DNA of 64,000 nucleotides from Actinomycetospora sp. NBRC 106375 (lineage in GTDB: Bacteria > Actinomycetota > Actinomycetes > Mycobacteriales > Pseudonocardiaceae), in assembly GCF_030269665.1 (NCBI RefSeq), contig NZ_BSTS01000016.1, positions 1 to 64,000 of the forward strand, written 5' to 3'. Shown here in pieces: positions 11,604-39,144 of the stretch. The stretch's first letter is position 1. Every line of letters starts with the position of its first letter. Both the position numbers and the translations under genes were made by a program. The notes beneath the pieces were generated by a model. It was not told the origin of the DNA, made no database searches, and saw only the letters and a list, made by a program, of their open reading frames with translations.

Positions 11604-11618
11604 CCGCCGGTTTCGCAG

Positions 11619-11663: not shown

Positions 11664-11771
11664 TGCCCTCTCGCCGTCGGTGACCGAGTACCGACGTACT
11701 CATGACCTTCCCTTTGCCTTCGCCGATCCTCGGGTGAGATCACCCGGCTCCGGCGTCGAAGGGACCCATCC

Positions 11772-13202: not shown

Positions 13203-13227
13203 CATCGACCGCGGCGGCCCCGCCCAT

Positions 13228-13267: not shown

Positions 13268-13899
13268 GTCGGACGGCGAGCGCGCAGGACCGCGTCGGAC
13301 AGGAAGGCGGGGCGGCCGTCGGGCTGGACGCCGGTGCGGGCGCGGCGCTCGGCGACCTCGATGGTCCAGCCGTCCAGGGCGTCGCCGAGCTCGGCGACCA
13401 GCTGCTCGGCCGTCGCGAAGAACTCCGGCGGGTGGTGGTGGGCGAACTCCTCGGGCATGCCCTCCGGGTCGTGCCCGACGAGCAGCAGCCGCCCGCCGGG
13501 TGCCACGGCTCCGGCGAGCCCGGCGAAGATCGTCGGGCGCACCGCGGTCCACAGCTGCATGAAGTGCGCGGTGACGAGGTCGTAGGAGCCGGGGACGTCG
13601 TCGTGGAGGAGGTCGACCACGGTCGTCGTCACCCGGTCCGCGACGCCGTCGGCCGCGGCGCGGGCCTCCACCCGGGAGAGCCCGACCTCCGACACGTCGA
13701 TCGCCGTGACGTGCCAGCCGCGGGTGGCGAGCCAGACCGCGTCGCCGCCTTCACCGCTGCCGACGTCGAGCGCGGTACCCGGCGTCAGCCCCGCGGCCTC
13801 CTGCACCAGCACGGCGTTGGGCTCGCCGCTCCAGAGCTTCTCGCTCGTGCGGTAGCGCTCGTCCCAGAACGCGGCGGTGAACTGGTCGTGGGTGCTCAT
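13264..13899 (-). CDS. Class I SAM-dependent methyltransferase (TehB/thiopurine-type)
   Basis: 211 aa. Rossmann-fold methyltransferase: motif I is ALDVGSGEGGDAVWLA, followed by VTAIDVSEVGLSRVEARA (ribose-binding acidic end of strand 2), YDLVTAHFMQL (motif IV region) and APGGRLLLVGHDP. N-terminal FWDERYRTSEKLWSGEPN is typical of the TehB-like methyltransferases that methylate small molecules. Its ATG at 13899 overlaps the stop of the upstream flavoprotein gene, so the two are co-transcribed under the operator at 14891. Probably part of a detoxification or redox-stress pair; acceptor unknown. Confidence 0.88.
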   Translation of the reverse strand: MSTHDQFTAAFWDERYRTSEKLWSGEPNAVLVQEAAGLTPGTALDVGSGEGGDAVWLATRGWHVTAIDVSEVGLSRVEARAAADGVADRVTTTVVDLLHDDVPGSYDLVTAHFMQLWTAVRPTIFAGLAGAVAPGGRLLLVGHDPEGMPEEFAHHHPPEFFATAEQLVAELGDALDGWTIEVAERRARTGVQPDGRPAFLSDAVLRARRPT

Positions 13900-24996: not shown

Positions 24997-25036
24997 GTGA
25001 GCGAACTTCGGGGCTATAGGCCCGAAGTTCGCTCAC
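24997..25036. terminator. 40-nt GTGAGC hairpin at the end of the catabolic operon
   Basis: Arms GTGAGCGAACTTCGGGGC and GGCCCGAAGTTCGCTCAC with loop TATA; one mismatch near the loop. The stop codon of the acyl-CoA dehydrogenase at 25033 is inside the right arm. Terminates the leftward operon 30069-25033. Confidence 0.75.
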
Positions 25037-26091
25037 GTACCGGTGCGGACCCCGCGGGAGAGGGTCGGCCAGAGCGCGTCGGGGCCGCCGGCGGCGAGCG
25101 TGCGACCGAGGTCGGTGGCCCAGGCCCGCTCGCCGCCCCACTCGTCGCGCCAGGACCACAGCCGGCGGGTGAGCACGCCGAGCGCGAACTCGCGGGTCAC
25201 GCCCATCGCGCCGGTGGCCTGGTGCGCGGCGGCGGCGACGAGCCCCGCCGCCTCGGACGCGACGGCGGCCGCCGCGGCGACGTCGAGGGCGTCGGGTTCG
25301 CCCTCCCCGGCGCCCACGGCGGCCGACCGGGCGGCCATCGCGGCCATCTCGGTCTGCTCGGCGATGCGCACGAGGTGGTCGGCCACGGCCGGGAACCGCG
25401 ACACCGGGCGGCCGAACTGCACCCGCTCGCCGGTGTAGGTCACGGTCACCTCGAGGACCCGGCGGGCCGCCCCGGCGATCAGGGCGGCGCGGGCCAGGGC
25501 CCCGCGCCGCGCCAGCAGCTCGCGGGTGTCCGGCGGGACGGACGCGATCGCCTCGGGGACGACGCCGTCGAGGTCGACGGACTCCCGGGGCTCGCCGGCG
25601 AGGTTGTGGCCGGGGGCGATCCGCGTCGTGGTCGGGTCGACCAGCGCCACCACGGCCCCGTCGGGACCGTCGGCCAGCACGGCGATCCGGGTCGCCGCGG
25701 ACGCCCACGCCACGCGGGCGAGCTGGCCGCTCAGCGCGCCGCCGGTCAGGGTCACCGCGCCCGTGCCCGTCGTCAGCGGCCCGTCGGGGAGAGGGAGGCC
25801 GGCGGCGGCGAGGAGGCGCCCGGCGAGCAGGCCCGTCTCGGCGAGCGGGACGGGCGCCGCGGCCGCACCGGCCGCCTCGAGCACCGAGCACGCCTCGGCC
25901 ACCGAGCCGCCCGCGCCCCCGGCGGCCTCGGGCACCCCGACCGTCGTGAAGCCCCCGGCGTGCAGCGGCTCCCAGACGGTCGCGGCCCAGCCGTCGCGCT
26001 CGGCGGCCTCGAGGATCTCGGGCGTGACGCGATCGGTGAGCAGGTCGGCGACGGCGTCACGGACCTCGGCCAGATCGTTCGTCGCCGTCAT
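25033..26091 (-). CDS. Acyl-CoA dehydrogenase, smaller subunit of a pair
   Basis: 352 aa acyl-CoA dehydrogenase-fold protein with divergent N-terminal and middle domains (VGVPEAAGGAGGSVAEACSVLE; VALVDPTTTRI) and a C-terminal helical domain (VTYTGERVQFGRPVSRFPAV, HQATGAMGVTREFALGVLTRR). Its ATG overlaps the stop of the partner dehydrogenase (ATGA). Short plus longer adjacent dehydrogenases resemble the alpha2beta2 FadE28-FadE29 type enzymes of actinobacterial steroid side-chain breakdown, where FAD sites form between subunits. It probably dehydrogenates a bulky or branched acyl-CoA. Last gene of the operon. Confidence 0.86.
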   Translation of the reverse strand: MTATNDLAEVRDAVADLLTDRVTPEILEAAERDGWAATVWEPLHAGGFTTVGVPEAAGGAGGSVAEACSVLEAAGAAAAPVPLAETGLLAGRLLAAAGLPLPDGPLTTGTGAVTLTGGALSGQLARVAWASAATRIAVLADGPDGAVVALVDPTTTRIAPGHNLAGEPRESVDLDGVVPEAIASVPPDTRELLARRGALARAALIAGAARRVLEVTVTYTGERVQFGRPVSRFPAVADHLVRIAEQTEMAAMAARSAAVGAGEGEPDALDVAAAAAVASEAAGLVAAAAHQATGAMGVTREFALGVLTRRLWSWRDEWGGERAWATDLGRTLAAGGPDALWPTLSRGVRTGT

Positions 26092-27236
26092 CAGGACCCC
26101 TTCGTGAGCGCCTTGGCCGCGATCCCGCGCAGCACCTCGGTCGTGCCGCCGCGCAGCGTCCACGTCGGTGCGTTCAGCACGCACTCGGCGAGCAGCCGGT
26201 CGAACATCGTCGGGCCGTCGGGGTCGATCTCCCCGCCCGCCGCGTCGCGGAGCGCCTCGACCACCTGCTGCTCGAACGTGGTGCCGATGTCCTTGACCAG
26301 CGAGGCCTCGACGGCGGGCGCCTCGCCCTGGTCGAGCGAGCGCGCGACGGCCAGGGACAGCTGGCGGATCGTCCAGAGCTGGGCGCCGATCCGCCCGATC
26401 GCGGCGGCGCGGGCGTCGTCGGGATCCCGGCCGTAGACGTCGACGAACGCGCGGTAGAGCCCGAGGATCGACAGGTAACGGTCCGGCCCCGAGCGCTCGT
26501 GCGCGAGCTCGGCTGTCACCTGCGCCCAGCCCTGCCCGACCTCGCCGAGCACGCGCTCGTCGGGCACGAACACGCCGTCGAGCACGACCTCGTTGACATG
26601 CTCCTCACCGTCGATCAGCGGGATCGGGGAGACGTGCACGTCCTCGTCGGCGAGGTCGACGATGAGCTGCGAGAGGCCCGCGTGCCGGTCGCCGGCCTCG
26701 GCCTGGGGCGTGGTCCGGCACAGCATCGCGGCGAAGTGGTTGAGGTGCGCGTTCGTCGTCCACACCTTGGTGCCGGACGCGCGCCATCCGCCCTCGACGG
26801 GGGTCGCGGTCGTGCGCACCGAGGCGAGGTCGGAGCCGGCGTCGGGCTCGCTCATGCCGAGCGAGAACCAGCACTCGCCGGCGGCGATCCGCGGCAGGAA
26901 CCACTCCCGCTGCTCCTCGGTGCCGAAGCGCAGGAAGGCGGGCGCGGACTGGCGCTCGGCGATCCAGTGGGCGGCGATCGGGGCGCCGGCGGCCAGCAGC
27001 TCCTCGATGACGACGAACCGGCGCACCGTGCTCGCGCCGGCGCCGCCGTAGCGCGTCGGGATCGACATGCCGACCCAGCCGCGCTGCGCGAGCGTGCGGG
27101 TGAACTCCGGGTCGTGGCGGCCGCCGAGGCCCAGACCGGGGCGGAAGTCCGGCGGGAGGGTCTCGGCCAGGAAGCCGCGGACCTCGTCGCGCAGCTTCTC
27201 CTCGTCGGCGGACAGGGCCGTGGGTTCGAAGATCAC
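26091..27236 (-). CDS. Acyl-CoA dehydrogenase, larger subunit of a pair
   Basis: 381 aa. Complete ACAD architecture: N-terminal helices (DEEKLRDEVRGFLAETLP), beta domain with FSLGMSEPDAGSDLASVRT (FAD/substrate loop) and GTKVWTTNAHLNHFAAMLCR, C-terminal helices ending APTWTLRGGTTEVLRGIAAKAL. The TLRGGTTEVLR segment is the FAD-binding region near the C terminus. GTG start at 27236 overlaps the enoyl-CoA hydratase stop. It likely works as a heteromer with the neighbour at 25033. It catalyses alpha,beta-desaturation in the CoA-ester pathway of this operon. Confidence 0.9.
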   Translation of the reverse strand: MIFEPTALSADEEKLRDEVRGFLAETLPPDFRPGLGLGGRHDPEFTRTLAQRGWVGMSIPTRYGGAGASTVRRFVVIEELLAAGAPIAAHWIAERQSAPAFLRFGTEEQREWFLPRIAAGECWFSLGMSEPDAGSDLASVRTTATPVEGGWRASGTKVWTTNAHLNHFAAMLCRTTPQAEAGDRHAGLSQLIVDLADEDVHVSPIPLIDGEEHVNEVVLDGVFVPDERVLGEVGQGWAQVTAELAHERSGPDRYLSILGLYRAFVDVYGRDPDDARAAAIGRIGAQLWTIRQLSLAVARSLDQGEAPAVEASLVKDIGTTFEQQVVEALRDAAGGEIDPDGPTMFDRLLAECVLNAPTWTLRGGTTEVLRGIAAKALTKGS

Positions 27237-27970
27237 TGGGTCCCCCTGCGTCGCTGGCTCCACATCTGGGTGGCGCGTTCGAACTCCACCGCCGCGTCCC
27301 ACGGCAGGCCCGGCGGCCCGGTCTCGGTGCGGAACGAGCGGACGGCCTCGCGGGCGAGGTCGGGGTCCTTCGCCGGGACGGCGGCCAGCGCGAGGGCGGT
27401 GTCCTCGACCTCGGCGTCGTCGACCGCGCGCCACGCCAGGCCCAGCTCGGCGGCGCGCGTGCCGTCGATCTCCTCGCCGAACAGGCCCAGCGCCGACGCC
27501 GCCTCGCGCCCGGCGGTGCGGTGCGCGATCGTGAAGAAGCCGCCGCCGGGGTGCAGGCCGATGCGCAGGAACCCCGCGATCAGGCGCGCGTTGCGGGCGA
27601 CCACCCGCAGGTCGGTGGCCAGCATGAGGTTGAGGCCCGCCCCGACCGCGGCGCCGCGGACGGCGGCGATCGTCGGGACCGCGAGCGTGCCGACGCGGCG
27701 GAAGGCGCCGTAGACCGCGCCGGTGTCGCGGAACGCGCCGTCCTCGGCCTGGTCGGCGCCGGGGTTCCAGGTGCGGCGGTCGGCGCCGCTGCAGAACGTC
27801 CCGGCGGCGCCGCGGACCACGGCCGCGCCGACGCCGCGGTCGGCGTCGACGGTGTCGCACGCGTCGGCGAGCTCGCGGCCCATCGCCGGCGTGAGGCCGT
27901 TGCGGACCTCGGGCGCGTCGACGGTCAGCACCGCGACGCCCTCGCTGATCTCGAGACCGATGCTGCCCAC
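27233..27970 (-). CDS. Enoyl-CoA hydratase/isomerase (crotonase) family
   Basis: 245 aa crotonase-fold protein: VAVLTVDAPEVRNGLTPAMG, AAVVRGAAGTFCSGADRRTW (first oxyanion strand) and AAVRGAAVGAGLNLMLATDL (second oxyanion loop). Hydrates or isomerises an unsaturated acyl-CoA produced by the dehydrogenases downstream in the same operon. GTG start at 27970 overlaps the CoA-ligase stop. The catalytic acid positions vary in this family and were not assigned, so hydratase versus isomerase is open. Confidence 0.9.
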   Translation of the reverse strand: MGSIGLEISEGVAVLTVDAPEVRNGLTPAMGRELADACDTVDADRGVGAAVVRGAAGTFCSGADRRTWNPGADQAEDGAFRDTGAVYGAFRRVGTLAVPTIAAVRGAAVGAGLNLMLATDLRVVARNARLIAGFLRIGLHPGGGFFTIAHRTAGREAASALGLFGEEIDGTRAAELGLAWRAVDDAEVEDTALALAAVPAKDPDLAREAVRSFRTETGPPGLPWDAAVEFERATQMWSQRRRGTQ

Positions 27971-30069
27971 TATCTCTCCGTCCTCAGCACGTCGACGGCG
28001 ACGGCGTGTCGCGGATCCGAGCGTGTGGCGATCCTGGCCTCAGACGCCAGGAAAGCCGCATTGCTCGAACTCCCGGGCGGCAGGAGGACCAACGGGTTGA
28101 CCTCCAGTTCGCCGAGCCCGGGGACGGTGGCCGCCCGGGAGATGCGCACGACCGCGTCGACGGCCGCGTCGAGGTCCACCCCGGGCGCCCCGCGGAGGCC
28201 GGCGAGCAGCGGCCAGCAGCGCAGCGAGCGGAGCAGGGCCCGTGCGGTTGCCTCGTCGACCGGGGCGAGGGCGTGCGCGACGTCGTGGTGGACCTCGGTC
28301 GCCGTGCCACCGTGCCCCACCGTGAGCACCGGGGGCCAGCCCTCGCGCCCGCCGTCGACGGCGACGAGCAGTTCGACCCCGGACGGGACCTGCTCCTGGA
28401 CGAGCACCCCGGTGACGCCGGGCAGGCCGGTGAGCTCGGCGTGCACGGCGGCGGCGTCGTCGCTCCGGACGCCGAGGCGCACCGCGCCGGCCTCGGTCTT
28501 GTGGTCGAGTCCCTCGGCCTTGAGGACGGCGAGACCGCCGAGCTCGTCCACCGCGGCGGTGACGTCGGGCGAGCGCGACGACCGCGGCCGCGCGACCCCC
28601 AGCGCGTCGAGCAGCGCCCAGCCGTCGCCGGGCACGGGGTCGCGGGCGTCGGCGGGAGCCGGGCCCGGCGCGGGCTCCCGGGCGACGGCGTCGAGGACAC
28701 GGACCGCGAGCGTGATCGAGGAGAACACCGGGATGCCCGCATCGCGGAGCACGGTGCGCGCCGGTCCGGTGCCGTCCTCGCCGGCCATCCAGGCCACGGC
28801 GACGGGCGGGGCGTCGGGACCCTGCTCGGCGACGGTCGCGACCAGGTCGCGGGCGAGCGCGGTGGCGGTGTCGCCGACGAGCATGGTCAGCAGCACGAGC
28901 ACCGCGTCCACGGCGCCGTCCGCGCGCACGAGCCCGCAGACCTCCCCGAAGCCCCCGCCGACGTTGAACAGCTGGGCCGTGACGTCCACCGGGTTGCCGA
29001 CCGCGCCGAACGCCGGGACGAGGCGGGTGAGCTTCTCCTGGGTCTCGGCGGTCAGCTCCGGGACCTCGAGCCCGGCCTCACTGGCCCGGTCGGCGGCGAG
29101 GATGCCCGCGCCGCCGGAGCTGGTCACCAGCCCGAGGCGCCGCCCCGCCGGTGCGCGACGCCCGCGGAGCAGGACGGCCGCGGCGAGCAGCTCCTCGACG
29201 TCGTCGACGAGCACGACGCCGTGGCGGCGGGACACGAGCGTGAACGCGGTGTCGTCGCCGAGCATCGCCCCGGTGTGCGAGACCGCCGCCCGTCGGCCCG
29301 GCGCCGAGCGCCCGGAGCGCAGCACCACCAGTGCGGTCCCGTGCGCGGCGGCCTCGGCGGCGAGCGCGGCGTAGTCGTCCGGGTCGGGCAGCGACTCCGC
29401 GTAGACCGTGAGGACGTCGACCGCGGGGTCGGCGACGAGGTGGCGGCCGACCTCGGTGAGGCCCACGTCGGCCTCGTTGCCGGTGGAGACCCAGGCGGTG
29501 AGGTCGAGCCCGCGCTCGGCGGCCGCGTCGAGCACCGAGCCACCGATCGCCCCGCTCTGGCCGACGTAGGCGATGCCGCTCGAGCCGGTCAGCGGGCGCT
29601 CGCCGGCGCTGGTGAACGTCGCGAACAGGCGGCTGCGGGCGTCGTAGATCCCCTGGCAGTTCGGGCCGAGGACGCGGGTGCCCGCGGCCCGGGCGGCCAC
29701 GACGAGCTCGTCCTGGAGCGCGCGGCCCTCCGGGCCCACCTCGGCGAAGCCCGACGCGAACACGATCACCAGGGCCGCCCCGGCGGCGCCGGCCTCGGTG
29801 ACCGCGGCGACCGCGCGCTCCGCGGGCACCAGGGCGAGCACGAGGTCGACCCCGCCCGGGATGTCGGCCAGCGACGCGGCGCACGGGACGCCGCCCAGCT
29901 CGGCGTACTTGGGGTTGACGGGGTGCACGGCGCCCGTGAAGCCGCGCTCGACGAGCCAGCGCAGCGGGCGGGCCATCGGGTTGTCCGCGCGGCCCGTGGC
30001 GCCGACGAGGGCCACCGAGCGCGGCGCCAGGACGCGTGCCCAGTCGGTGGGCGCCGGTGCATCCGTCAC
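27970..30069 (-). CDS. ADP-forming acyl-CoA synthetase (acetate-CoA ligase family), fused subunits
   Basis: 699 aa. N-terminal CoA-binding domain (PRSVALVGATGRADNPMARP), succinyl-CoA-synthetase-like domains (GTRVLGPNCQGIYD, GIAYVGQSGAIGGSVLD, VSHTGAMLGDDTAF with the phospho-acceptor region) and C-terminal ATP-grasp (GLAVLKAEGLDHKTEAGAVR, GLGELEVNPLVLLP). Such enzymes activate acids such as acetate, propionate, aryl or pimelate-like acids with ATP to give ADP. First gene of the leftward operon, controlled from the region with TTGGTATCCAA. The last about 18 codons before the final stretch lie within a 52-nt dispersed repeat (28018-28069), so the C terminus (SNAAFLASEARIATRSD...) is repeat-derived. 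Confidence 0.9.
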   Translation of the reverse strand: MTDAPAPTDWARVLAPRSVALVGATGRADNPMARPLRWLVERGFTGAVHPVNPKYAELGGVPCAASLADIPGGVDLVLALVPAERAVAAVTEAGAAGAALVIVFASGFAEVGPEGRALQDELVVAARAAGTRVLGPNCQGIYDARSRLFATFTSAGERPLTGSSGIAYVGQSGAIGGSVLDAAAERGLDLTAWVSTGNEADVGLTEVGRHLVADPAVDVLTVYAESLPDPDDYAALAAEAAAHGTALVVLRSGRSAPGRRAAVSHTGAMLGDDTAFTLVSRRHGVVLVDDVEELLAAAVLLRGRRAPAGRRLGLVTSSGGAGILAADRASEAGLEVPELTAETQEKLTRLVPAFGAVGNPVDVTAQLFNVGGGFGEVCGLVRADGAVDAVLVLLTMLVGDTATALARDLVATVAEQGPDAPPVAVAWMAGEDGTGPARTVLRDAGIPVFSSITLAVRVLDAVAREPAPGPAPADARDPVPGDGWALLDALGVARPRSSRSPDVTAAVDELGGLAVLKAEGLDHKTEAGAVRLGVRSDDAAAVHAELTGLPGVTGVLVQEQVPSGVELLVAVDGGREGWPPVLTVGHGGTATEVHHDVAHALAPVDEATARALLRSLRCWPLLAGLRGAPGVDLDAAVDAVVRISRAATVPGLGELEVNPLVLLPPGSSSNAAFLASEARIATRSDPRHAVAVDVLRTER
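28018..28069 (-). repeat. 52-nt dispersed repeat, copy inside the CoA-ligase gene
   Basis: On the plus strand this runs CGAGCGTGTGGCGATCCTGG ... GCATTGCTCGAA; it matches the complement of 58849-58900 at 50 of 52 positions. The core is a near palindrome CCTGGCCTC-A-GACGCCAGG. Here it is translated as the near-C-terminal part of the ligase; the other copy is intergenic. Confidence 0.88.
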
Positions 30070-30204: not shown

Positions 30205-30879
30205 GTGACCGGGACCGACGTCGAGCCCGCGCGCCGGGCGACCAGCGTCCAGCGCGCCGTGTCGGAGATCCGCCGGATGCTGCGCTCGCGCGAGCTCGTG
30301 CCCGGCCAGCAGGTGCGCCAGGAGACCCTGGCCGCGCGGCTCGGGGTCAGCCGCATCCCGGTGCGCGAGGCGCTCAAGACGCTCGAGGCCGAGGGCGTCA
30401 TGCGCCACGAGCCGCACGTCGGCTACGCCGTGGCCCGGCTCAACGCCGACGAGCTCGCGCAGGTCTACCTCATGCGCCGCGCGCTCGAGACCGAAGTGCT
30501 CCGCGCCCTGCCCCGGCTCACCGGCGACCAGCTCCGCCACCTCACGACCCTCAACGAGGCGATCACCGAGCAGGTCGAGAACGTCGACGTCGCCGGCATC
30601 GTCGCGGCCAACGTGGCCTTCCACTTCGCCATGTTCCGGCTCTCCGGCCTCGACCTGGTGGTCGACGAGATCGACCGGCTCTGGCGGCGCAGCGAGCCCT
30701 ACCGCACGGTGCACCTCTACGACTCCGCCGGGCGTGCCCGCGTCGTCCGCGAGCACCGCAAGATGATCACCGCGCTGCGGCGGGGAGACAACGCCGCGGT
30801 GGTCGCGCTGATGGACGCCCACCGCGAGGTGACGGTGGCCGACCTCCACGCGGCGCTCGGCCTCCCGCCCCACGCGTAG
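30205..30879 (+). CDS. GntR family regulator, FCD (FadR) subfamily
   Basis: 224 aa from the GTG at 30205. Winged HTH (about residues 12-78): VQRAVSEIRRMLRSRELVPG, then LAARLGVSRIPVREALKTLE. The all-helical FCD domain follows (LMRRALETEVLRAL, FHFAMFRLSG, VREHRKMITALRRGD), with Asp/His residues that usually bind a metal and a carboxylate effector. It sits between the leftward CoA-catabolic operon and the rightward MFS/selenoprotein operon, both carrying GTATCCAATC, and most likely represses both until a pathway acid accumulates. Confidence 0.93.
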   Translation: MTGTDVEPARRATSVQRAVSEIRRMLRSRELVPGQQVRQETLAARLGVSRIPVREALKTLEAEGVMRHEPHVGYAVARLNADELAQVYLMRRALETEVLRALPRLTGDQLRHLTTLNEAITEQVENVDVAGIVAANVAFHFAMFRLSGLDLVVDEIDRLWRRSEPYRTVHLYDSAGRARVVREHRKMITALRRGDNAAVVALMDAHREVTVADLHAALGLPPHA

Positions 30880-30887
30880 CCGAGATC

Positions 30888-30897
30888 GTATCCAATC
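30888..30897. promoter_or_regulatory. Second GTATCCAATC site, upstream of the MFS gene
   Basis: Exact 10-bp copy of the site at 30124-30133, 8 bp after the GntR stop and 80 bp before the MFS start. Suggests the importer-selenoprotein operon has its own GntR-controlled promoter here. Confidence 0.58.
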
Positions 30898-30977
30898 TTC
30901 TCTGGACTTCCGCCGTGTGACCCACCTAACCTCCGCCGGGTGACGGCGTGACGACGCGCGGTCACGGGGAGGAACCC

Positions 30978-32273
30978 ATGACCACCGAGCAGGACCGCCC
31001 GGACGCGCCCGTCGGCACGGCGACCGCCGCGCCGCCGGAGTACACGCCGGGCGACCGGCGGCGGATCCTCGGCGCCGCCTGCCTGGGCTGGGGCATGGAG
31101 TACTTCGACTTCATGCTCCCGACGCTGCTCGCCGGCGCGATCATGAAGTTCTACGGCGTCTCGGCCGGGGTGTTCGGTGTCGCGATCGCGGGCCAGCTCG
31201 TCGGCTCCGCGATCGGCGGCGTGCTCTTCGGCTGGCTCGGCGACCGCTACGGGCGCCGGCGCACGCTGATCTGGTCGATCCTCATCTACTCCGTCGCCAC
31301 CGGGCTCGTGTTCCTCGCGCCGAACTTCGCCGTCTTCCTCGTGCTGCGGATCCTCGCAGGCGTCGGCACGGGCGGCGAGTGGGCGGTCGGGTTCGCCTGG
31401 CTCAACGAGGCGTGGGCGCCGAAGCGCCGCGGGCTCGGCGGCGGCCTGGTGCAGGCGTCGCTGTGGCCGGCCTACGCGCTCGCGGTGCTCGTCGCCCAGG
31501 TCGTGGTCGACTGGCGGTGGGCGTTCCTGGTCGGCGTCGTGCCCGCCCTGGCGTGCGTGTGGATCCGCTACGCGTGCCGGGAGTCGCGCCAGTGGGAGGA
31601 GCTCCAGGCGCGCAAGGCGGCGGGGCTGCTCACCGAGGCCACCGCGGCGAAGGCCAACCGGTCGACGTGGCGTCAGTTGGTGTCCCGGGACTCGCTGCCG
31701 ATCGTGCTCGTCGGCCTCGTCGTCGCCTTCGGTGCGCAGTGGGTGCCCTACACCGCGACGGCGTGGATGCCCTCGATGCTCAAGAGCGACCTCGGCTTCG
31801 ACGCGGGCTCGGCGAGCCTCGTGCTCTACATCGCGTCCGCGGTGTCGTTCGTCGGCTTCATCCTCGCGGGCTGGCTCTCGGACCGCTGGGGTCGCCGGCC
31901 GGTGTTCGTCGCGTTCGCGGCCCTGCAGACCGTGACGTTCGCGGTGATGCTCGCCCTCGCCCTCGGCGGCACCGGCCTCGGGAACTTCGTCTGGCTCTAC
32001 CTCGCCTCGAGCCTGTTCCTCGGCTACTTCGGCATCTTCGGGGTCTGGTTCGGCGAGCTGTTCCCGACGCGCATCCGCTCGCTCGGCTCGGCGTCGGCCT
32101 ACAACATCGGCCGGGGCCTCTCGGGCATCGGGACGATCATCGGCGGCGTCGTCGCGACGAGCGCGGGCTACGGGATCGCCGTCGGCATCGCCGTCGTGGG
32201 CGCCGCGATCGTCACCGTCGCCGCCCTGTTCCTGCGCGACCGCGCCGGCCGCGTCATCACCGCCGACGAGTGA
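30978..32273 (+). CDS. MFS transporter, probable organic-acid importer
   Basis: 431 aa with about 12 membrane helices. MFS signature motifs appear after helix 2 (GWLGDRYGRRRTL) and at the symmetric position after helix 8 (GWLSDRWGRRPVF); LRILAGVGTGGEWAVGFAW marks helix 4. The GWGMEYFDFMLPTLL start and GGEWAVG resemble the sialate/aromatic-acid:H+ symporter groups that import carboxylates. ATG at 30978 behind GGGGAGG. It is 14 bp upstream of the first selenoprotein gene, so it should bring in the substrate of the cluster. Confidence 0.92.
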   Translation: MTTEQDRPDAPVGTATAAPPEYTPGDRRRILGAACLGWGMEYFDFMLPTLLAGAIMKFYGVSAGVFGVAIAGQLVGSAIGGVLFGWLGDRYGRRRTLIWSILIYSVATGLVFLAPNFAVFLVLRILAGVGTGGEWAVGFAWLNEAWAPKRRGLGGGLVQASLWPAYALAVLVAQVVVDWRWAFLVGVVPALACVWIRYACRESRQWEELQARKAAGLLTEATAAKANRSTWRQLVSRDSLPIVLVGLVVAFGAQWVPYTATAWMPSMLKSDLGFDAGSASLVLYIASAVSFVGFILAGWLSDRWGRRPVFVAFAALQTVTFAVMLALALGGTGLGNFVWLYLASSLFLGYFGIFGVWFGELFPTRIRSLGSASAYNIGRGLSGIGTIIGGVVATSAGYGIAVGIAVVGAAIVTVAALFLRDRAGRVITADE

Positions 32274-32287
32274 GGGAGACCGGCACC

Positions 32288-34027
32288 GTGCCCGAGCCGC
32301 ACTACGAGGTCCTGGGTCCGCTGGGCCCGCGCACCGTCGGCGAGGTCGCCGAGCACGAGCGCCCGGCGTCGCTGGCCGGCCGCCGCGTCGCGTACCTGTG
32401 GGACGAGCTGTTCCGCGGCCCCGAGATGTTCGAGGTGATCTCCGAGGTCGCCAGGGAACGCCACGGCGACGTCGCGTTCGTCGGCTGGGAGGAGTTCGGC
32501 AACTTCCACGCCTCCGCGGCCGAGGAGCGCCGGGTGCTCGAGGCCCTGCCCGAGCTGCTGCGCGCCCACCGCGTCGACCTCGTCGTCGCCGCGGTGGGCG
32601 CTTGAGGCTCCTGCATGCCTGCCGTGATGCGGGCAGCGGCAACCGCCGAGCGCGCCGGGGTCCCGGCGACCGCGATCGGCGGCGCGGGGTTCGAGGGCAT
32701 GGGACGCGCCGTCGGGAAGTCCCTCGGTGTGGGGCACGTGCCGATCGTCAGCTACCCGGGCGTGATCCTCACCGACCCCACCGAGGTGTTCCGGACCAAG
32801 ATGCGCGAGCAGGTGGCCCCGGCGGTGGTCGACGCGCTCGTGGCGGGGGACGGCGCGCGGGAGCAGGCCGGCACGCGGTCGTCGTCGGGCGACGCGCCGG
32901 CCACGGAGCCCGTCGAGCACGGGGCCACCGAGATCGTCGCCCGCGGCGAACTCGAGGAGATCACCGACCACTTCGAGGCCCGCGGCTGGACCGACGGCCT
33001 GCCGGTCGTGCCGCCGACCCCGGAGCGCGTCGCGGCGTTCCTCGCGCACACCGGCCGGGACCCCGACGACTCCCTCGGTGAGCTCGCCCCCGACCTGCGC
33101 CGGGCCACGGTGCGCAGCGTCGCGGTCAACGGGGTCATGGCCGGCTGCCGTCCCGAGGACATGCCGGTGCTGGTCGCGATCGTCGCGTGCGTCGCCGACC
33201 CGGTCTTCCGGGTGCAGGACGCCGGGTCGACGCCCGGCTGGGAGTCCCTCGTGGTGCTCTCGGGCCCGGTCGTCGAGCGGCTCGGGTTCCACAGCGGCAC
33301 CGGTGCGATGCGGGTCGGGCGGCGGGCGAACACCGCGGTCGGACGGTTCCTGCGGCTCTATCTCCGCAACGTCGCCGGCCTGCGCATCCCGCCCGGGGAG
33401 ACCGACCAGGGCGCGATCGCGTCGACGTTCCACGTCGCCCTCGCCGAGGACGACGCCGCCGTGCGGGCGCTGGGCTGGCCGTCGTTCCGGGCCGACCGCG
33501 GCTTCGCCGACGGCGACAGCGTCGTCACCGTCCAGAGCGTCGTCGCCGTCAGCGCACCGATCTACTCCGGCGGCGAGTCCGCCGCGGACCACCTCGACGC
33601 GCTGACGACGATCTTCGGCAACGCGATCGGGCCGTGGGCCTACACCGGCCTCGAGTTCGGCGCCTTCCACCCGCTGCTCGTGCTCGGGCCGGCCGTGGCC
33701 CGGGCGCTCGCGGGCTTCGGGGTCGACAAGGACGCGCTGCGGGCGCACCTCGCCGAGCACATGCGGGTGCCGGTGCGCCAGCTCCAGGCCTGTGCCTGGA
33801 ACGTCGGCTCGACGAGCTTCGACCTCGACGCCGCCGTCGCGGCCGGCGAGCTCGACGAGCGCTACGCGGGCACCGACCCGGACCGTCTCGTGCCGATGGT
33901 GCCGCGCGCGGGCGACATCGGGATCGTGCTCGCGGGCAACCCGAGCCGGAACCAGTCGCGCGGCTTCGTGCAGAACCACGTCCAGGGCGTGCCGGTGAGC
34001 CGGCGGATCGAGGAGGACCCGCAGTGA
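32288..34027 (+). CDS. UGSC-type selenoprotein fused to a UGSC-associated domain (in-frame TGA = Sec106)
   Basis: 579 aa if the TGA at 32603-32605 is read as selenocysteine. GTG at 32288 follows AGGGAGA. Residues 1-105 run RRVAYLWDELFRGPEMFEVI to LVVAAVGA; then Sec106-Gly-Ser-Cys, and the frame continues unbroken: MPAVMRAAATAERAGVPATA, GHVPIVSYPGVILTDPTEVF. This VGxUGSC context matches the described UGSC selenoprotein family. After a variable linker (about 195-215) comes a second domain (ARGWTDGLPVVPPTPERVAA, GVMAGCRPEDMPVLVA, RRANTAVGRFLRLYLRNVAG) paralogous to the genes at 35470 and 36489. A GU-containing hairpin follows the TGA. Stop overlaps the flavoprotein start. Likely redox-active selenol/thiol protein; substrate unknown. 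A conventional reading would split it into two ORFs. Confidence 0.87.
32606..32640 (+). promoter_or_regulatory. Candidate bacterial SECIS hairpin 1
   Basis: Immediately 3' of the TGA at 32603, CTGCC (32619-32623) pairs with GGCAG (32632-32636) around an 8-nt loop GTGATGCG that contains GU. Bacterial SECIS elements lie within the coding sequence just downstream of UGA with a GU in the loop. The stem is shorter than in the second gene, so this is a moderate assignment. Confidence 0.5.
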
Positions 34028-34860
34028 CAGCCGTGACGACCGACTGGGACGTGGCCGTAGTGGGCGCCGGTATCGCCGGCCTCACCGCCGCGCGCGCGTG
34101 CGCCGAGCGCGGGCTGCGGGTGGTGGCCCACGACGCGCTCGCCCCCGGCGGGCAGCTGATCAACCTCGGGACGCTCGCCGACTGGCCCGGCCCGGCGACG
34201 ACCGGCCCGGACCTCATGAGCGCGCTGCTCACCGACGTCATGGAACGCGGCGTCGAGATCGCCTACGGCGAGGTCACCGGCCTGCGCACCGACCCGCTCA
34301 CCGTCGACGCCGCCGAGGGGCCGGCGTCGGCGCGGGCGGTCGTCGTCGCCACCGGCCGGGGCCCCGGGCGCCTCGACGTCCCGGACGCCGAGGGCTGGGA
34401 GGGCCGCGGGCTCTCCCACTGCGCCACCTGCGACGGGCCGCTGCACGCCGGGCGCGAGGTGGTGGTCGTCGGCGACGACGAATGGACCGCCCACGAGGCG
34501 CTCGAGCTCGCCGGGATCGCGAAGCGGGTCACGGTGGTGAGCGCGTCGCCGACCTGGCCGGCGGCGCTCGACCGCCGGCTCACCGACGCGGTGGACGTGC
34601 GCCGCGGGACGGTCGCGTCCCTCGCGGGCGAGGGCACCCTCGCCGCCGTGCATCTCGCCGACTCCGACGTGCTCGAGGCCTCCGGGATCTTCGTCTACAC
34701 CCACGCCGAGCCCCGCACGGCGCTGCTCGACGGGCTGCCCGCCGGCGCGCCGGTGTGGTCGGCAGGCGACGTCACCGGCGCCGACCGCCACCTGCTCACC
34801 GCCGCCGCGGACGGCCTGCGCGCCGGCCACGCCGTCGTCGCCCACCTCGAGGAGAGCTGA
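34024..34860 (+). CDS. Thioredoxin-reductase-like flavoprotein (CATC centre)
   Basis: 278 aa from the GTG at 34024, which overlaps the selenoprotein stop. FAD loop DVAVVGAGIAGLTAARACAE; GGQLINLGTLADWPGPATTG as in thioredoxin reductases; redox motif SHCATCDGPLH, the exact CATCDG of TrxR; NAD(P)-domain VVVVGDDEWTAHEALELA, in which the usual GxGxxA loop is altered (GDDEWTA), so cofactor use may differ; FAD motif VWSAGDVTG. Its own stop overlaps the ATG of the second selenoprotein. Position between two UGSC selenoproteins suggests it reduces or oxidises their selenenylsulfide, as TrxR does for glycine reductase systems; that role is inferred. Confidence 0.9.
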   Translation: MTAVTTDWDVAVVGAGIAGLTAARACAERGLRVVAHDALAPGGQLINLGTLADWPGPATTGPDLMSALLTDVMERGVEIAYGEVTGLRTDPLTVDAAEGPASARAVVVATGRGPGRLDVPDAEGWEGRGLSHCATCDGPLHAGREVVVVGDDEWTAHEALELAGIAKRVTVVSASPTWPAALDRRLTDAVDVRRGTVASLAGEGTLAAVHLADSDVLEASGIFVYTHAEPRTALLDGLPAGAPVWSAGDVTGADRHLLTAAADGLRAGHAVVAHLEES

Positions 34861-35438
34861 TGCGCATCGTCGACCCGACGTCCGGGGCAACGTCCGAGGA
34901 CACGACCGTCGCCGCGGCGGCGGGGACCACGCCGGCCGGAGCTGTATCCGGCCTTCGGCGCGGCAGCTCCGCTGCGCTGCGTGCCGCCCTGTGCGGCCTG
35001 TCCAACTCCAAGCCCGGCGCCCACGACCTCCTCGACGCGATCGGGCGGCGCCTGGCCGACGAGCACGGGCTCGGCCCGAACGGCCTGGAGGCGAAGCCGA
35101 GCGCCGCGGTCGGCGCCGACCCGGCGCTGCTCGACCACCTCGCCGCGCAGTACCGGCTCGCCGTCGTCGCCATCGGCGATTGAGGCTCGTGCTCGTCGTG
35201 GAGTCTCCACGACTCGCTCGAGCTCGAGCGCCGCGGCGTGCGCTCGATCCTCGTGGTGACCTCGTCGTTCCTGCCGCTGGTCACCGCCCAGGCGAAGGCG
35301 CGCCGTGCCGACCCGCGGCTCGTCGTCGTCGACCACCCGATCGGCGGGCTCTCGCCGGCGGAGTTCGCCGGACGCTCCGACGCCGCGTACGCCGGGGTCG
35401 TCGCCGAGCTGCGGTCGATGGGGGAGCTCGCACCATGA
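34860..35438 (+). CDS. UGSC-family selenoprotein (in-frame TGA = Sec108)
   Basis: 192 aa if the TGA at 35181-35183 is selenocysteine. ATG at 34860 overlaps the preceding stop. N-terminal MRIVDPTSG and SNSKPGAHDLLDAIGRRLAD match the family; the sequence around the TGA is YRLAVVAIGD-Sec-GSCSSWSLHDSLELERRG, then VRSILVVTSSFLPLVTAQAK and VVVDHPIGGLSPAEF, in unbroken frame to 35438. The family pattern GDUGSCSSxSxHD is thus complete. A perfect 8-bp hairpin with GUC loop follows the TGA. Residues about 31-43 (GLRRGSSAALRAA) are encoded by a dispersed repeat, an in-frame intrusion. A 12-codon ORF overlaps its end before the next gene. Function: redox-active selenoprotein of unknown substrate. Confidence 0.92.
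34951..34987 (-). repeat. About 35-nt dispersed repeat, copy inside a selenoprotein gene
   Basis: The complement contains AGCGGAGCTGCCGCGCCG, shared exactly with copies at 39145-39182 and 58948-58981, with the flanks (GCGGCACG..., AGGC) also similar to the 58948 copy. Here it is translated in frame as part of the second UGSC protein, just before its conserved SNSKP segment. Confidence 0.75.
35195..35213 (+). promoter_or_regulatory. Candidate bacterial SECIS hairpin 2
   Basis: Eleven nt after the TGA at 35181-35183, GTCGTGGA (35195-35202) pairs perfectly with TCCACGAC (35206-35213) around loop GUC. The distance from UGA and a GU at the apex agree with SelB-binding SECIS hairpins of bacterial selenoprotein mRNAs. 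Confidence 0.78.
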
Positions 35439-35469
35439 CGGGAGACGAAGCGGAGCCGGAGCTCGACCC

Positions 35470-36492
35470 ATGACCTCTGACGTGATCGACCTGCCCGACG
35501 TCGACGACGCCTGGGCGTGGGCGGCGGCCTGCGAGGAGCGCGGGTGGGGCGACGGGCTGCCGACGGTCCCGCCGACCGAGGAGCGGGTGGCGGCGATGCT
35601 GGCGGCGACGCCCACCGCGGTCGACCTCGGGCCCCTGCCGCCGCGCGGTGTCACGCCGACCCCGCGCTCGGTCGCGGCGAACGCGGTGATGGCCGGGTGC
35701 CGGCCCGCGGACATGCCGGTGCTGCTCGCCGCGCTCGCCGCGGTGCAGGACGAGGCCTACAACCTGCACGGCACGCTCGCGACGACTCACCCGTGCGCGC
35801 CGATGGTGATGGTCTCCGGTCCGGCGCGCGCCGCGCTGGGGTTCAACGCCGGGGGCAACTGCCTCGGGCAGGGCACGCGCGCCAACGCCGTGGTCGGCCG
35901 GGCGCTGTCGCTGGTGCTGCTGCACGTCGGCGGGGCGACCCCGGGCGTCCTCGACCGCAGCACCCAGGGTTCGCCGGCGAAGTACACGTTCTGCTTCGCC
36001 GAGTCCGACGAGTCGCCCTGGCCGTCCTCCGCGGTGCGGCGCGGGTTCGGTGCCGAGCAGAGTGTCGTGTCCGTCATGGCCGCCGAGCCGCCGCACAACG
36101 TCAACGACCACGGCAGCACCACCGGCGCGGAGATCCTGCTGACGATCGCCGGGACGATGGCCCAGCCGGGGTCGAACAACGTCTACGTCCGGGGCCCGCA
36201 CCTGCTGCTGCTCGGTCCGGAGCACGCCGCGACGCTGCACCGTGACGGCTGGACGCCCGACAGCATCCGCGCGCACCTCTGGGAGCACGCCCGCATCCCC
36301 GTCGACCACGTCTCGGACGGCAACCGGCGGCAGTTCGTCGAGTGGGGCGTCGAGCCCGACGGCGACGCGTACACCGTCAGCGACGCGCCGGGGAACCTGC
36401 ACATCGCCGTGGCGGGCGGCGCGGGGAAGCACTCGGCGTGGATACCGTCGTTCGGGGGGACGGAGCTGGTGTCGCGGGTCGTGCCGGGGTGA
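35470..36492 (+). CDS. UGSC-associated domain protein (stand-alone paralogue B)
   Basis: 340 aa. No named domain recognised. It aligns along its length with the C-terminal domain of the fused selenoprotein: ERGWGDGLPTVPPTEERVAA, NAVMAGCRPADMPVLLAALA, GQGTRANAVVGRALSLVLLH and DESPWPSSAVRRGF. The Cys in AGCRP is conserved between the two copies. Other Cys occur at HPCAP, GNCLG and YTFCFAE. No signal peptide. ATG at 35470; ends overlapping the next gene. Expected to act in the same complex or on the same metabolite as the selenoproteins; the family often sits beside UGSC genes in my inference from this cluster alone. Confidence 0.85.
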   Translation: MTSDVIDLPDVDDAWAWAAACEERGWGDGLPTVPPTEERVAAMLAATPTAVDLGPLPPRGVTPTPRSVAANAVMAGCRPADMPVLLAALAAVQDEAYNLHGTLATTHPCAPMVMVSGPARAALGFNAGGNCLGQGTRANAVVGRALSLVLLHVGGATPGVLDRSTQGSPAKYTFCFAESDESPWPSSAVRRGFGAEQSVVSVMAAEPPHNVNDHGSTTGAEILLTIAGTMAQPGSNNVYVRGPHLLLLGPEHAATLHRDGWTPDSIRAHLWEHARIPVDHVSDGNRRQFVEWGVEPDGDAYTVSDAPGNLHIAVAGGAGKHSAWIPSFGGTELVSRVVPG

Positions 36493-37415
36493 GCGACGAG
36501 GAGGACGTCGGTGACGGGCTACCGGTCGTGGCGCCGACCCCGGCGCGGGTCGCGGCGATGCTGGGGTCCACCCCGGACCCGGACGACGTGCTCGGTCTCG
36601 TGCCGCCGCTGTTCGGGGAGCTGACACCGCGCGGCGCGGCCACCGCGTGCGTGCTCGCCGGCGCCCCGGTCGGTGCGCTGCCCGTGGTCGTCGCCGCCGC
36701 CCGGGCCGCGCTGGCGTCCGAGCTGAACCTGCTCGGCGTGGCCACGACGACGGGGACGCCGGCGGTCGCGCTCGTCGTCGCCGGGCCCGTCGCCGACCGG
36801 CTCGGTCTGACCCACGGCACCGGCCTGCTCGGGCCCGGCCCGCACACCAACGGCTCGGTCGGCCGCGCGCTCGCGCTCACCCTCGCGACCGCCGGCGGCG
36901 TCCGGCCCGGCGAGACGACGATGGCCACGACGGCCCAGCCGGCCCGCTACACCTGCTGCCTCGTCGAGGACCCCGCCGGGCCGTGGGGCACGCTCGCCGC
37001 CCGCCGGGGCGCCGGCGCGGGGGACGCCGTCACCGTGGTCCCGGTCGGCGGCACGGCGGAGGTGCTGCCCCGCGACGACCTCGCCGACCCGGACGCCCTG
37101 CTCGTGCCGCTGGGCGACGCCCTCGCCGGCGCGGTCCTCGCGGCCGGCGACCTCACCCGGGGCCGCACGATGACCCAGGTGCTCGTGCTCCCGCCCGAGG
37201 TCGCGACCCGGCTGGCGCCGTCCCTGCCGACCGACGACGACCTCACCGCGGCGCTGCGGGACCGGGGCGACGCGGCGCTGCGGGCCCGCACCGGCCGCGA
37301 GGACCTGGGCGTGGCCGCCGAGATCGCCCCGGTCGTTGCCGGCGGCCCCGGCGTCAAGATGCTCCATCTGCCCGGCTGGATCGGCGGCAGCCAGGCGGTC
37401 ACCGTGCCCATGTGA
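36489..37415 (+). CDS. UGSC-associated domain protein (stand-alone paralogue C, Cys-less motif)
   Basis: 308 aa from the GTG at 36489, overlapping the previous stop. Same fold family as the protein at 35470: VGDGLPVVAPTPARVAAML, GPHTNGSVGRALALTLATAG and VEDPAGPWGTLAARRG. The AGCRPxDMPVL motif of the other two copies has become AGAPVGALPVV, losing Cys and the acidic/Arg residues, so it may be a structural rather than catalytic subunit. It ends ...KMLHLPGWIGGSQAVTVPM, and its TGA stop lies inside a 44-nt perfect palindrome. Last gene of the operon. Confidence 0.84.
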   Translation: MSDEEDVGDGLPVVAPTPARVAAMLGSTPDPDDVLGLVPPLFGELTPRGAATACVLAGAPVGALPVVVAAARAALASELNLLGVATTTGTPAVALVVAGPVADRLGLTHGTGLLGPGPHTNGSVGRALALTLATAGGVRPGETTMATTAQPARYTCCLVEDPAGPWGTLAARRGAGAGDAVTVVPVGGTAEVLPRDDLADPDALLVPLGDALAGAVLAAGDLTRGRTMTQVLVLPPEVATRLAPSLPTDDDLTAALRDRGDAALRARTGREDLGVAAEIAPVVAGGPGVKMLHLPGWIGGSQAVTVPM

Positions 37416-37453
37416 GCGAAATTCCCGGCTATAGCCGGGAATTTCGCTCACAT
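37410..37453. terminator. Perfect 44-nt palindrome (GTGAGC hairpin family), bidirectional terminator
   Basis: ATGTGAGCGAAATTCCCGGC followed by TATA and the exact complement; 20-bp arms. It contains the stop codon (37413-37415) of the last gene of the selenoprotein operon and separates it from the convergent phoD gene. The most perfect of the five family members. Confidence 0.8.
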
Positions 37454-37458
37454 ACGGG

Positions 37459-39012: not shown

Positions 39013-39144
39013 GGGCAGTCCTCCGTCCGGGCTCAGACGGGGGCGCCGGCGGGCCGGCGTCGCATCCCCCGCCCCACCAACGCATGACCCGGTGTCACCG
39101 GTTCGGACGTTCCGTGACCGGACTTCCGCGCACGGTCACCGGTC

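What the first reader, a model, noticed from the sequence alone, without database searches (positions are those of the whole stretch)
30205..37415. Candidate undescribed Sec/flavin-dependent catabolic system under GntR control
GntR-FCD regulator, MFS importer, UGSC-fusion selenoprotein, TrxR-like CATC flavoprotein, UGSC selenoprotein and two paralogous helper proteins are packed with 0-30 bp gaps and 4-base overlaps. The layout parallels glycine/proline reductase systems (selenoproteins regenerated by TrxR) but with unrelated proteins in an aerobic-type actinobacterium. The substrate is presumably an imported carboxylate whose product becomes a CoA ester in the divergent operon. Pathway role is inferred.
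Basis: inference. Interest (0 to 1): 0.92.

Follow-up and report, generated by a model that had tools for sequence, protein, structure and literature searches.

The report
Selenium enzyme pair with dedicated reductase
An actinobacterium carries a conserved gene block for a two-part selenium-containing enzyme of unknown reaction, with its own electron-feeding flavoprotein, importer and fatty-acid-type degradation genes, and the enzyme pair itself turns out to be widespread in bacteria and salt-loving archaea.

Summary
In detail: GntR, MFS importer, UGSC-partner fusion, TrxR-like flavoprotein, a second UGSC protein and two more partner proteins. Both UGSC genes have an in-frame UGA, and the genome has selA, selB and tRNA-Sec. 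Sec-type UGSC genes share a hairpin after the UGA that Cys-type genes lack (85 of 109 versus 2 of 39). The six core genes keep their order in 12 of 12 relatives, which were chosen for having both UGSC genes.

UGSC is a known selenoprotein family without a known function. New here: (1) the "helper" is a near-obligate partner (36 of 38 UGSC loci opened) with no meaningful Pfam, NCBIfam or PDB match, so the unit is a two-protein enzyme; (2) UGSC is a remote relative of the Sec-bearing end of glycine-reductase GrdB (HHalign 91%), so "unrelated proteins" is wrong; (3) the flavoprotein keeps CxxC but has lost both NADPH motifs, as in ferredoxin-dependent reductases.

Best model: Sec-dependent reductive cleavage of an imported carboxylate, recharged by the flavoprotein, with the product going to CoA ligase and beta-oxidation. 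Reaction and substrate are inferred; across all UGSC loci most catabolic genes are not enriched nearby.

The parts
30205..30879 (+). GntR-FCD regulator
   Evidence: Pfam FCD 76.8 bits and GntR 52.7 bits; tblastn hit over 200 bits in 9 of 12 syntenic loci
30948..32273 (+). MFS importer of the metabolite/organic acid:H+ symporter type
   Evidence: Pfam MFS_1 165.8 bits; best NCBIfam hits are sialate, aromatic acid and metabolite:H+ symporters, all below cut-off; 12 of 12 syntenic loci
32288..34027 (+). UGSC1-partner fusion selenoprotein: UGSC domain about residues 8-185, partner domain (H3) from about residue 222; Sec codon 32603-32605
   Evidence: PF24696 84.2 bits; partner HMM 313.5 bits; fusion frame open for 458-480 codons after the UGA in 13 of 13 loci, window included
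32603..32650 (+). UGSC1 Sec codon and predicted SECIS-like hairpin (weaker evidence than for UGSC2)
   Evidence: MFE -20.8 kcal/mol, z -1.3; not in the set (score 84, threshold 90); third codon base variable at 3 of 9 codons just after the UGA against 36 of 59 elsewhere
34024..34860 (+). TrxR-like flavoprotein with FAD motif GAGIAG and CATC, without NADPH motifs
   Evidence: motif alignment; CxxCDG in 13 of 13 loci, window included
34860..35438 (+). UGSC2 selenoprotein, Sec codon 35181-35183
   Evidence: PF24696 119.1 bits; AlphaFold2 model pLDDT 87
35195..35213 (+). SECIS hairpin of UGSC2 (8-bp stem, AGTCT apex with GU in the loop)
   Evidence: z -3.1; at least 7 of the 8 pairs in 85 of 109 Sec-type and 2 of 39 Cys-type UGSC genes
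35470..36492 (+). UGSC partner protein h1
   Evidence: partner HMM 410.7 bits; no Pfam/NCBIfam family; AlphaFold2 model pLDDT 92
36489..37415 (+). UGSC partner paralogue h2 (lacks the MAGC cysteine)
   Evidence: partner HMM 248.9 bits; alignment A2; tblastn match in 12 of 12 syntenic loci
27970..30069 (-). acyl-CoA synthetase of the Succ_CoA_lig/ATP-grasp type, divergent operon
   Evidence: 9 of 12 syntenic loci, in 2 of them moved downstream
27233..27970 (-). enoyl-CoA hydratase
   Evidence: 8 of 12 loci
26091..27236 (-). acyl-CoA dehydrogenase 1
   Evidence: 8 of 12 loci
25033..26184 (-). acyl-CoA dehydrogenase 2
   Evidence: 3 of 12 loci, several fetched stretches end before it

Best explanation
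The block encodes a multi-subunit selenoenzyme built from a widespread two-protein module: a UGSC protein, carrying Sec-x-x-Cys at the start of a helix on a flavodoxin-like fold, and a partner protein of unknown fold that probably holds the substrate site. Here the module is expanded to UGSC1-H3 fused, UGSC2, h1 and h2. I propose that it works like the GrdB/PrdB part of glycine and proline reductases. The selenolate attacks an imported carboxylate and reductively removes a substituent (C-N, C-O or C-S). The Sec is left as a selenenylsulfide with the UGSC cysteine, and the co-encoded CxxC flavoprotein reduces it again. That flavoprotein probably takes electrons from ferredoxin or another carrier rather than NADPH. 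The product acid is then made a CoA ester and beta-oxidised by the divergent operon, and GntR controls both. Shown by sequence: Sec encoding, the near-obligate pair, block conservation, remote GrdB homology and loss of the NADPH motifs. Inferred: redox chemistry on Sec-Cys, and the flavoprotein as reductant of UGSC. Speculative: reductive cleavage and a carboxylate substrate.
For: Sec: one TGA in each of four UGSC matches of the genome; selA, selB and tRNA-Sec; a hairpin with a swapped base pair (73 G-C, 32 C-G) and a GU loop in Sec-type but not Cys-type genes. Third codon base variable at 5 of 18 codons just after the UGA against 67 of 99 elsewhere, both UGSC genes together. All 24 Sec-UGSC genomes tested have tRNA-Sec above cut-off. 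Pair: 36 of 38 UGSC loci opened have the partner next door; 151 of 178 partner genes have a UGSC within 500 bp on the same strand. Unit: core order kept in 12 of 12 genomes; CoA genes within the stretch in 10 of 12, relocated but linked in 3 of these. GrdB link: HHalign 91%, E 9e-7, Sec on Sec, against 0.1-0.8% for reversed, GrdE, TrxB and partner controls. GrdB and PrdB belong to reductive deaminases (PMC13188914 passages), and glycine reduction uses TrxR and Trx (PMC3091704 passage). Reductase link: TrxR-like genes adjacent to the pair or within about 2 kb in 6 of 17 plasmid loci, one of them trxB-trxA-partner-UGSC.
Against: No GrdE/PrdA pyruvoyl partner (PF09338) and no GrdB (PF07355) match in this genome, so the pyruvoyl chemistry of Grd cannot be copied directly. 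GRDB is not among the Pfam families shown for 56 UGSC proteins (25 of 28 shown). Most UGSC loci have no TrxR gene nearby: 2 of 119 near, the window being one, and 0 far, so a dedicated reductase is not essential to the family. ACAD, ECH, SDR, CoA-transferase and TctC genes are not enriched near the pair over the 4-10 kb background (ratios 0.6-1.4). CoA genes were not found in the stretches of 2 of 12 syntenic loci (L235, L237). HHalign was run on chosen families, not against a database. I saw no experimental work on UGSC or its partner in the listings and passages.
Confidence: 0.42

Rival explanations
1. The module is a selenol-dependent peroxide or electrophile scavenger (a peroxidase or detoxifying reductase) kept beside catabolic genes to protect them, with the flavoprotein as its recycling enzyme.
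For: Sec-x-x-Cys plus a TrxR-like recycler is a usual peroxidase arrangement (recalled). A cited title reports peroxidase activity of GrdB (reference list of PMC3091704). The 2008 paper thought UGSC likely had a thioredoxin-like fold (PMC2398784 passages).
Against: The AlphaFold2 model is an alternating strand-helix fold, not a thioredoxin fold. The near-obligate 340-residue partner with many conserved positions suggests a specific substrate. The genes are tied to an importer in 12 of 12 and to the acyl-CoA synthetase in 9 of 12 syntenic loci.
Confidence: 0.17
2. The pair catalyses a non-redox reaction (dehydration, hydration, isomerisation or C-X elimination) in which Sec is a nucleophile or metal ligand; the flavoprotein only keeps the Sec reduced in air.
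For: Weak Foldseek resemblance of the partner to fumarase and cyclic amide hydrolases. Aconitase X and DUF126 beside two partner proteins of fusion length. MmgE/PrpD, CoA-lyase and isocitrate lyase family genes near others.
Against: The Foldseek hits have probability 0.25 or less and TM about 0.2, so they may be noise. A second Cys sits three residues after Sec in at least 90% of 56 members, which points to redox.
Confidence: 0.2
3. The reaction runs in the oxidative direction: the pair dehydrogenates or couples thiols of the substrate and the NADPH-less flavoprotein acts as electron acceptor, passing electrons on, for example to oxygen or a ferredoxin.
For: The flavoprotein has lost both NADPH motifs, and an aerobic genome has no shortage of acceptors (recalled).
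Against: FFTR-type enzymes with the same loss act as reductases (PMC12796991 passages; PMC10880999 passages). The Arthrobacter locus has trxA and a TrxB that keeps its NADPH motifs.
Confidence: 0.13
4. The UGA codons are ordinary stops and the reading frames are broken or separate genes.
For: No protein data in hand; UGA is the commonest stop in GC-rich genomes (recalled).
Against: A single TGA at the same place in four paralogous matches of the genome and in UGSC1 and UGSC2 of all 12 relatives, with conserved protein on both sides and a hairpin after it.
Confidence: 0.02

Closest known systems
UGSC family (seleno)protein, Pfam PF24696 / NCBIfam NF041046; UGSC-containing protein of Zhang and Gladyshev 2008 (PMC2398784)
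   Same: Both UGSC genes belong by the Pfam cut-off and the UGSC motif; a UGSC fused to an unknown domain was already reported in 2008 (passages).
   Different: The 2008 text suggested a thioredoxin-like fold, and in the passages I saw there was no function, partner, operon or reductase. Here the near-obligate partner family, the GrdB link and the dedicated flavoprotein are added. Both window proteins fall below the stricter NF041046 cut-off.
Glycine/sarcosine/betaine reductase component GrdB and proline reductase PrdB (PF07355)
   Same: Sec at the same place in the profile alignment, an E-L-E-x-x-G-x-P stretch and a C-terminal P-H-P type turn; grd operons with trxA/trxB (PMC10880999 passages).
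   Different: UGSC is a stand-alone domain of about 190 residues; GrdE/PrdA is absent from the genome; the partner protein is different; the setting is an aerobic-type genome.
[quoted passage not shown]
   Same: TrxR family, CxxC, loss of both NADPH motifs, short length (277 aa; the 288-aa PDB chains 6gna/6gnd also match; that these are FFTR-type is recalled).
   Different: Not shown to cluster with FFTRs; carries its own G-x-D-x-W-x-A signature instead of the NADPH loop; electron donor unknown.
Low-molecular-weight NADPH thioredoxin reductase (TIGR01292)
   Same: 133-bit match, CATCDG, FAD motifs.
   Different: Far below the 343-bit cut-off, and NADPH motifs GGGxxA and HRRxxxR absent.

Membership tests
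UGSC family PF24696 | Pfam gathering score 25 bits | tested here: met
   84.2 bits (UGSC1), 119.1 bits (UGSC2)
UGSC family NF041046 (equivalog) | curated cut-off 125 bits | tested here: not met
   42.8 and 105 bits
UGSC selenoprotein | in-frame UGA in UGSC with SECIS downstream | tested here: met
   UGSC2. UGSC1: UGA met; its hairpin is weaker (z -1.3) and was not in the set
UGSC selenoprotein | Sec machinery in the genome | tested here: met
   tRNA-Sec 74.8 bits, selB, selA; selD not searched
GrdB/PrdB | match to Pfam GRDB PF07355 | tested here: not met
   not among the families shown for 56 UGSC proteins at E up to 10 (25 of 28 families were shown)
GrdB/PrdB | homology of the Sec-bearing C-terminal region | tested here: met
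   HHalign 91.4%, E 9.1e-7, Sec aligned to Sec; controls 0.1-0.8%
Glycine/proline reductase system | pyruvoyl proprotein GrdE/PrdA (PF09338) present | tested here: not met
   0 matches in the window's genome
Glycine reductase system | GrdA and the acetyl-phosphate-forming GrdC/GrdD | not tested
   not searched
NADPH thioredoxin reductase | GGGxxA and HRRxxxR NADPH motifs | tested here: not met
   absent in 13 of 13 block proteins, present in the Arthrobacter, Roseovarius and Variovorax SRS16 TrxBs
FFTR | FAD motif and CxxC kept, NADPH motifs lost | tested here: met
   CxxC 13 of 13; first FAD motif seen whole in 12 of 13, the stretch of L228 being cut; NADPH motifs lost in 13 of 13
FFTR | clusters with known FFTRs in a tree | not tested
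   no tree with known FFTRs was built
FFTR | uses ferredoxin | not testable with these tools
   needs enzyme assay

The most novel reading that the evidence does not exclude
UGSC plus its unnamed partner is a new, very widespread class of selenoenzyme: a stripped-down, pyruvoyl-free cousin of glycine/proline reductase working in aerobic bacteria and, with Cys, in haloarchaea. It reductively cleaves diverse imported organic acids, and in some lineages is fed by an NADPH-independent flavoprotein.
Probability: 0.3. Interest if true: 0.93.

Novelty: new variant of a known kind. Interest (0 to 1): 0.78.

Why it matters
UGSC was among the major selenoprotein families of the GOS metagenome (PMC2398784 passages) and was still listed without a function in the 2026 review I saw in passages (PMC13188914). 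Recognising that it is half of a two-protein enzyme, that it is a remote GrdB relative, and that some operons carry a flavoprotein likely to reduce it, turns an orphan selenoprotein into a testable enzyme system. If the GrdB-like model holds, Sec-dependent reductive cleavage is not confined to anaerobic amino-acid fermenters but is used by aerobic bacteria, and its Cys form by archaea, on organic acids.

Tried and rejected
Chance or mis-annotation: rejected by synteny and the hairpin. UGA as a plain stop: rejected. Partner as GrdE/PrdA or as part of GrdB: profile comparison gave 0.2% probability each. Partner homologous to UGSC: 0.1%. Partner fold: no PDB sequence match up to E 1 and no fold match at E 0.001. 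UGSC fold: two Foldseek matches at E 0.001 (a mitoribosomal structure and a flavodoxin-like domain), TM 0.5 or less among the 50 shown, so only a generic flavodoxin/Rossmann-like class; three weak PDB sequence matches at E 0.1-0.74. Guilt by association across 119 loci (within 4 kb against 4-10 kb): ACAD, ECH, SDR, CoA-transferase, TctC and MFS ratios were 0.6-1.4 and an SsuB-type ATPase 0.4; the few with an excess rest on small counts (LysR 4 to 0, GMC 4 to 0, DUF6282 3 to 0, acyl-CoA synthetase 2 to 0), so I do not use them to name a substrate. TrxA, aconitase X, DUF126 and ComA were found in 0 of 119 near stretches of that set. Downstream genes: the response regulator at 39084 and the ORF at 39971 were found in 4 of 12 syntenic loci, so I leave them out of the unit; my query for 37448-39085 probably used the wrong frame, so I claim nothing about it.

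Rows dropped and limits: of 48 UGSC matches, two are the window's and 8 others were not opened. One search left out UGSC hits under 90 bits (the window's UGSC1 among them), stretches with N and duplicates. One search used 12 loci, window included, leaving out L234, whose tblastn numbers equal those of L233. One search left out L233 in the distance correlation (r 0.84, n 149), which shared ancestry inflates. In one search, a set of four short GRDB-like stretches gave 0.3%, but they were cut at the Sec codon or out of frame and say nothing. Among its 38 decoys two scored above GrdB (47); both aligned to the N-terminal half of UGSC over 91 and 94 columns, so I judge them UGSC-containing frames. 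The third scored 35, the rest 23.4 or less. The 12 syntenic genomes were chosen because both UGSC genes were listed about 2.5 kb apart, and that list was truncated. Of 24 plasmid records found, 17 were opened.


Full report
What is there. The 7.2-kb stretch holds seven genes on the + strand: GntR-FCD, an MFS importer, a UGSC-partner fusion, a TrxR-like flavoprotein, UGSC2 and two paralogous proteins h1 and h2. Pfam names the first five but nothing in h1 or h2; NCBIfam has nothing for h1 or h2 either. Divergently lie an acyl-CoA synthetase, an enoyl-CoA hydratase and two acyl-CoA dehydrogenases.

Selenocysteine. The window's genome has four UGSC matches, each with one TGA in an otherwise open frame. 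It has tRNA-Sec at 74.8 bits, selB and selA beside formate dehydrogenase genes; selD was not searched. I compared the DNA after the Sec codon in 109 distinct Sec-type and 39 Cys-type UGSC genes. An 8-bp stem at a fixed distance has at least 7 pairs in 85 of 109 Sec-type genes and 2 of 39 Cys-type genes. One pair is G-C in 73 and C-G in 32. The loop starts with GT in 100 of 109 against 1 of 39. Folding energies agree (mean z -1.63 against -0.63). The window's UGSC2 has all 8 pairs; its UGSC1 scored below the threshold of that set and has a different, weaker hairpin (z -1.3). In 12 loci, window included, codons with an invariant amino acid vary in the third base at 5 of 18 just after the UGA and 67 of 99 elsewhere (UGSC1 3 of 9 and 36 of 59; UGSC2 2 of 9 and 31 of 40). 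Of 63 family genomes tested for tRNA-Sec above cut-off, the counts are 24 of 24 with Sec-UGSC, 19 of 19 with only TGA-free UGSC listed and 11 of 20 without UGSC. The machinery is there whenever needed, but it also occurs without UGSC.

The partner. h1, h2 and the C-terminal domain of the fusion are one family. I opened 38 loci chosen only because they encode UGSC (L040, L041, L044-L079; 8 further matches were not opened). In 36 the partner is next door (in L079 the UGSC is the 29-bit Pfam match). The two exceptions, L074 and L075, lie about 735 and 128 bp from a contig end. In 80 loci chosen only by the partner from the genome collection, 76 contain a UGSC, one of them a weak 42-bit match. Over all loci, 151 of 178 partner genes have a UGSC on the same strand within 500 bp, 102 with UGSC first and 49 with the partner first. 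Five of 39 UGSC genes parsed, the window's UGSC1 among them, are fused to it. Of 31 partner proteins scanned, Pfam and NCBIfam gave only hits to single members, best E 9.5e-4. AlphaFold2 gives a confident model (pLDDT 92) with no PDB fold match at E 0.001. The GOS paper had noted a UGSC fused to an "Unknown_1" domain (passages of PMC2398784); it may be this family, but I did not see its alignment.

The block as a unit. In 390 genomes of the family, 79 have a UGSC match. Twelve listed genomes in two genera have two UGSC genes about 2.5 kb apart. All 12 have MFS, UGSC1, its fused partner domain, the flavoprotein, UGSC2, h1 and h2 in the same order and strand; two of the 12 gave identical numbers and may be near-duplicates. 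GntR was a good match in 9. The acyl-CoA synthetase lay within the fetched stretch in 9, the hydratase in 8 and dehydrogenase 1 in 8; at least one CoA gene in 10, none in L235 (cut by a contig end) and L237. In three genomes CoA genes had moved to the other side yet stayed linked. The fused partner domain forms its own clade, whose nearest rows are from two Chloroflexota loci and then one more distant actinobacterial locus. One of these (L169) also has a UGSC run into a partner domain, a second UGSC and a separate partner in one run, with metallo-beta-lactamase-fold, DUF6282 and amidohydrolase genes. So the multi-copy arrangement is not peculiar to these genera.

Relation to glycine reductase. 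The UGSC profile (56 sequences) against the C-terminal region of 13 actinobacterial GrdB proteins gives HHalign 91.4%, E 9.1e-7, with the two Sec columns aligned; against whole GrdB 86.3% (earlier, smaller alignments gave 58-63%). Reversed sequences, GrdE, TrxB and the partner gave 0.1-0.8%. The AlphaFold2 model of UGSC2 (pLDDT 87) is an alternating strand-helix fold with residue 108, the Sec, just before a helix. That fits a flavodoxin-like rather than a thioredoxin fold, against the guess in the 2008 paper. GrdB and PrdB belong to reductive deaminases (passages of PMC13188914); [quoted passage not shown] trxA3/trxB3 lie in the grd operon of Clostridioides (passages of PMC10880999). This genome has no GRDB or GrdE/PrdA match.

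The flavoprotein. Sequence searches place it in the thioredoxin-reductase family. All 13 block versions, window included, keep CxxCDG. In the motif alignment the NADPH loop GGGxxA is replaced by GxDxWxA and HRRxxxR is gone in all 13. Of the other TrxR-like genes found near UGSC pairs, those of Arthrobacter, Roseovarius and Variovorax SRS16 keep both motifs, while those of Haloterrigena (with the same DEW signature), a second Variovorax, Neorhizobium and L076 have lost one or both. FFTRs cannot use NADPH (passage of PMC12796991), and loss of the NAD(P)H motifs is used to recognise clostridial FFTRs (passage of PMC10880999). TrxR-like genes lie adjacent to the pair or within about 2 kb in 6 of 17 plasmid loci I opened, out of 24 records found. 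In the larger set of 119 loci only the window and one other have one.

What it does. The evidence supports a Sec redox enzyme of two protein types with, here, its own flavoprotein. That it acts on an imported carboxylate rests on the MFS type and the linked CoA operon, and only in this block; across 119 loci most such genes are no more common near the pair than 4-10 kb away. Other UGSC loci sit beside different importers: ABC, TRAP and TctC. A further UGSC pair in this genome lies on the same strand as a LysR gene and an NMT1/THI5-type ABC transporter. I read this as one enzyme family adapted to many substrates.

Literature. Searches for UGSC with selenoprotein, UGSC phrases, selenoprotein with Pseudonocardia, and NF041046/PF24696/DUF6282 listed surveys that include UGSC. 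I read passages of five of them; they give no function, partner or biochemistry, and three others I saw as listings only. Active Sec use in an aerobic actinobacterium is documented for formate dehydrogenase in Actinomycetospora chiangmaiensis (abstract and passages of PMC7176365). Whether the window is from that genus I cannot tell.

Verdict. Observation confirmed; interpretation partly supported and sharpened. The selenoprotein is known; the two-protein enzyme, its GrdB kinship and the NADPH-less flavoprotein are, as far as these searches go, not described. The reaction remains a hypothesis.

Noticed in passing
L040 (own genome, contig C12:1-20000), about 7859-14784: A further UGSC-partner pair with Sec, on the same strand as an ABC transporter with an NMT1/THI5-type binding protein and a LysR gene: probably another substrate for the same enzyme type.
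   Followed up: partly
L042 (own genome, contig C23:5000-24900): selA, selB and tRNA-Sec lie together with formate dehydrogenase alpha and beta genes.
   Followed up: partly
L240, L241 (G676) and other same-family genomes: Several genomes of the family carry TGA-free UGSC genes, often two copies about 15 kb apart; the region between them was not annotated.
   Followed up: no
L190, L133, L072, L169, L251-L253: DUF6282 (its sequence looks amidohydrolase-like to me, recalled) recurs near UGSC pairs or the partner in haloarchaea, Actinomycetota and Chloroflexota.
   Followed up: partly
L191 and L253: A gene annotated phosphosulfolactate synthase lies near UGSC pairs in Arthrobacter and in Natrinema, hinting at sulfonate substrates in some lineages.
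   Followed up: no
L194, L195: Partner proteins of fusion length in Vibrio europaeus and Sporomusa sit beside aconitase X and DUF126 genes; the UGSC part was weak (Sporomusa) or not detected (Vibrio) by my profile.
   Followed up: no
L140, L172, L148; G436 and G437: Tandem or multiple copies of the pair in one genome (up to 7-8 UGSC matches), in G436 and G437 with one copy about 3 kb from the tRNA-Sec gene: paralogue expansion.
   Followed up: no
L248: In Paracoccus ferrooxidans the partner gene lies a few genes from selB.
   Followed up: no
L118, L137, L138, L152, L174: Metagenome-assembled records titled Bordetella parapertussis carry the pair; the titles look to me like automatic labels on environmental betaproteobacteria and should not be read as that species.
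   Followed up: no
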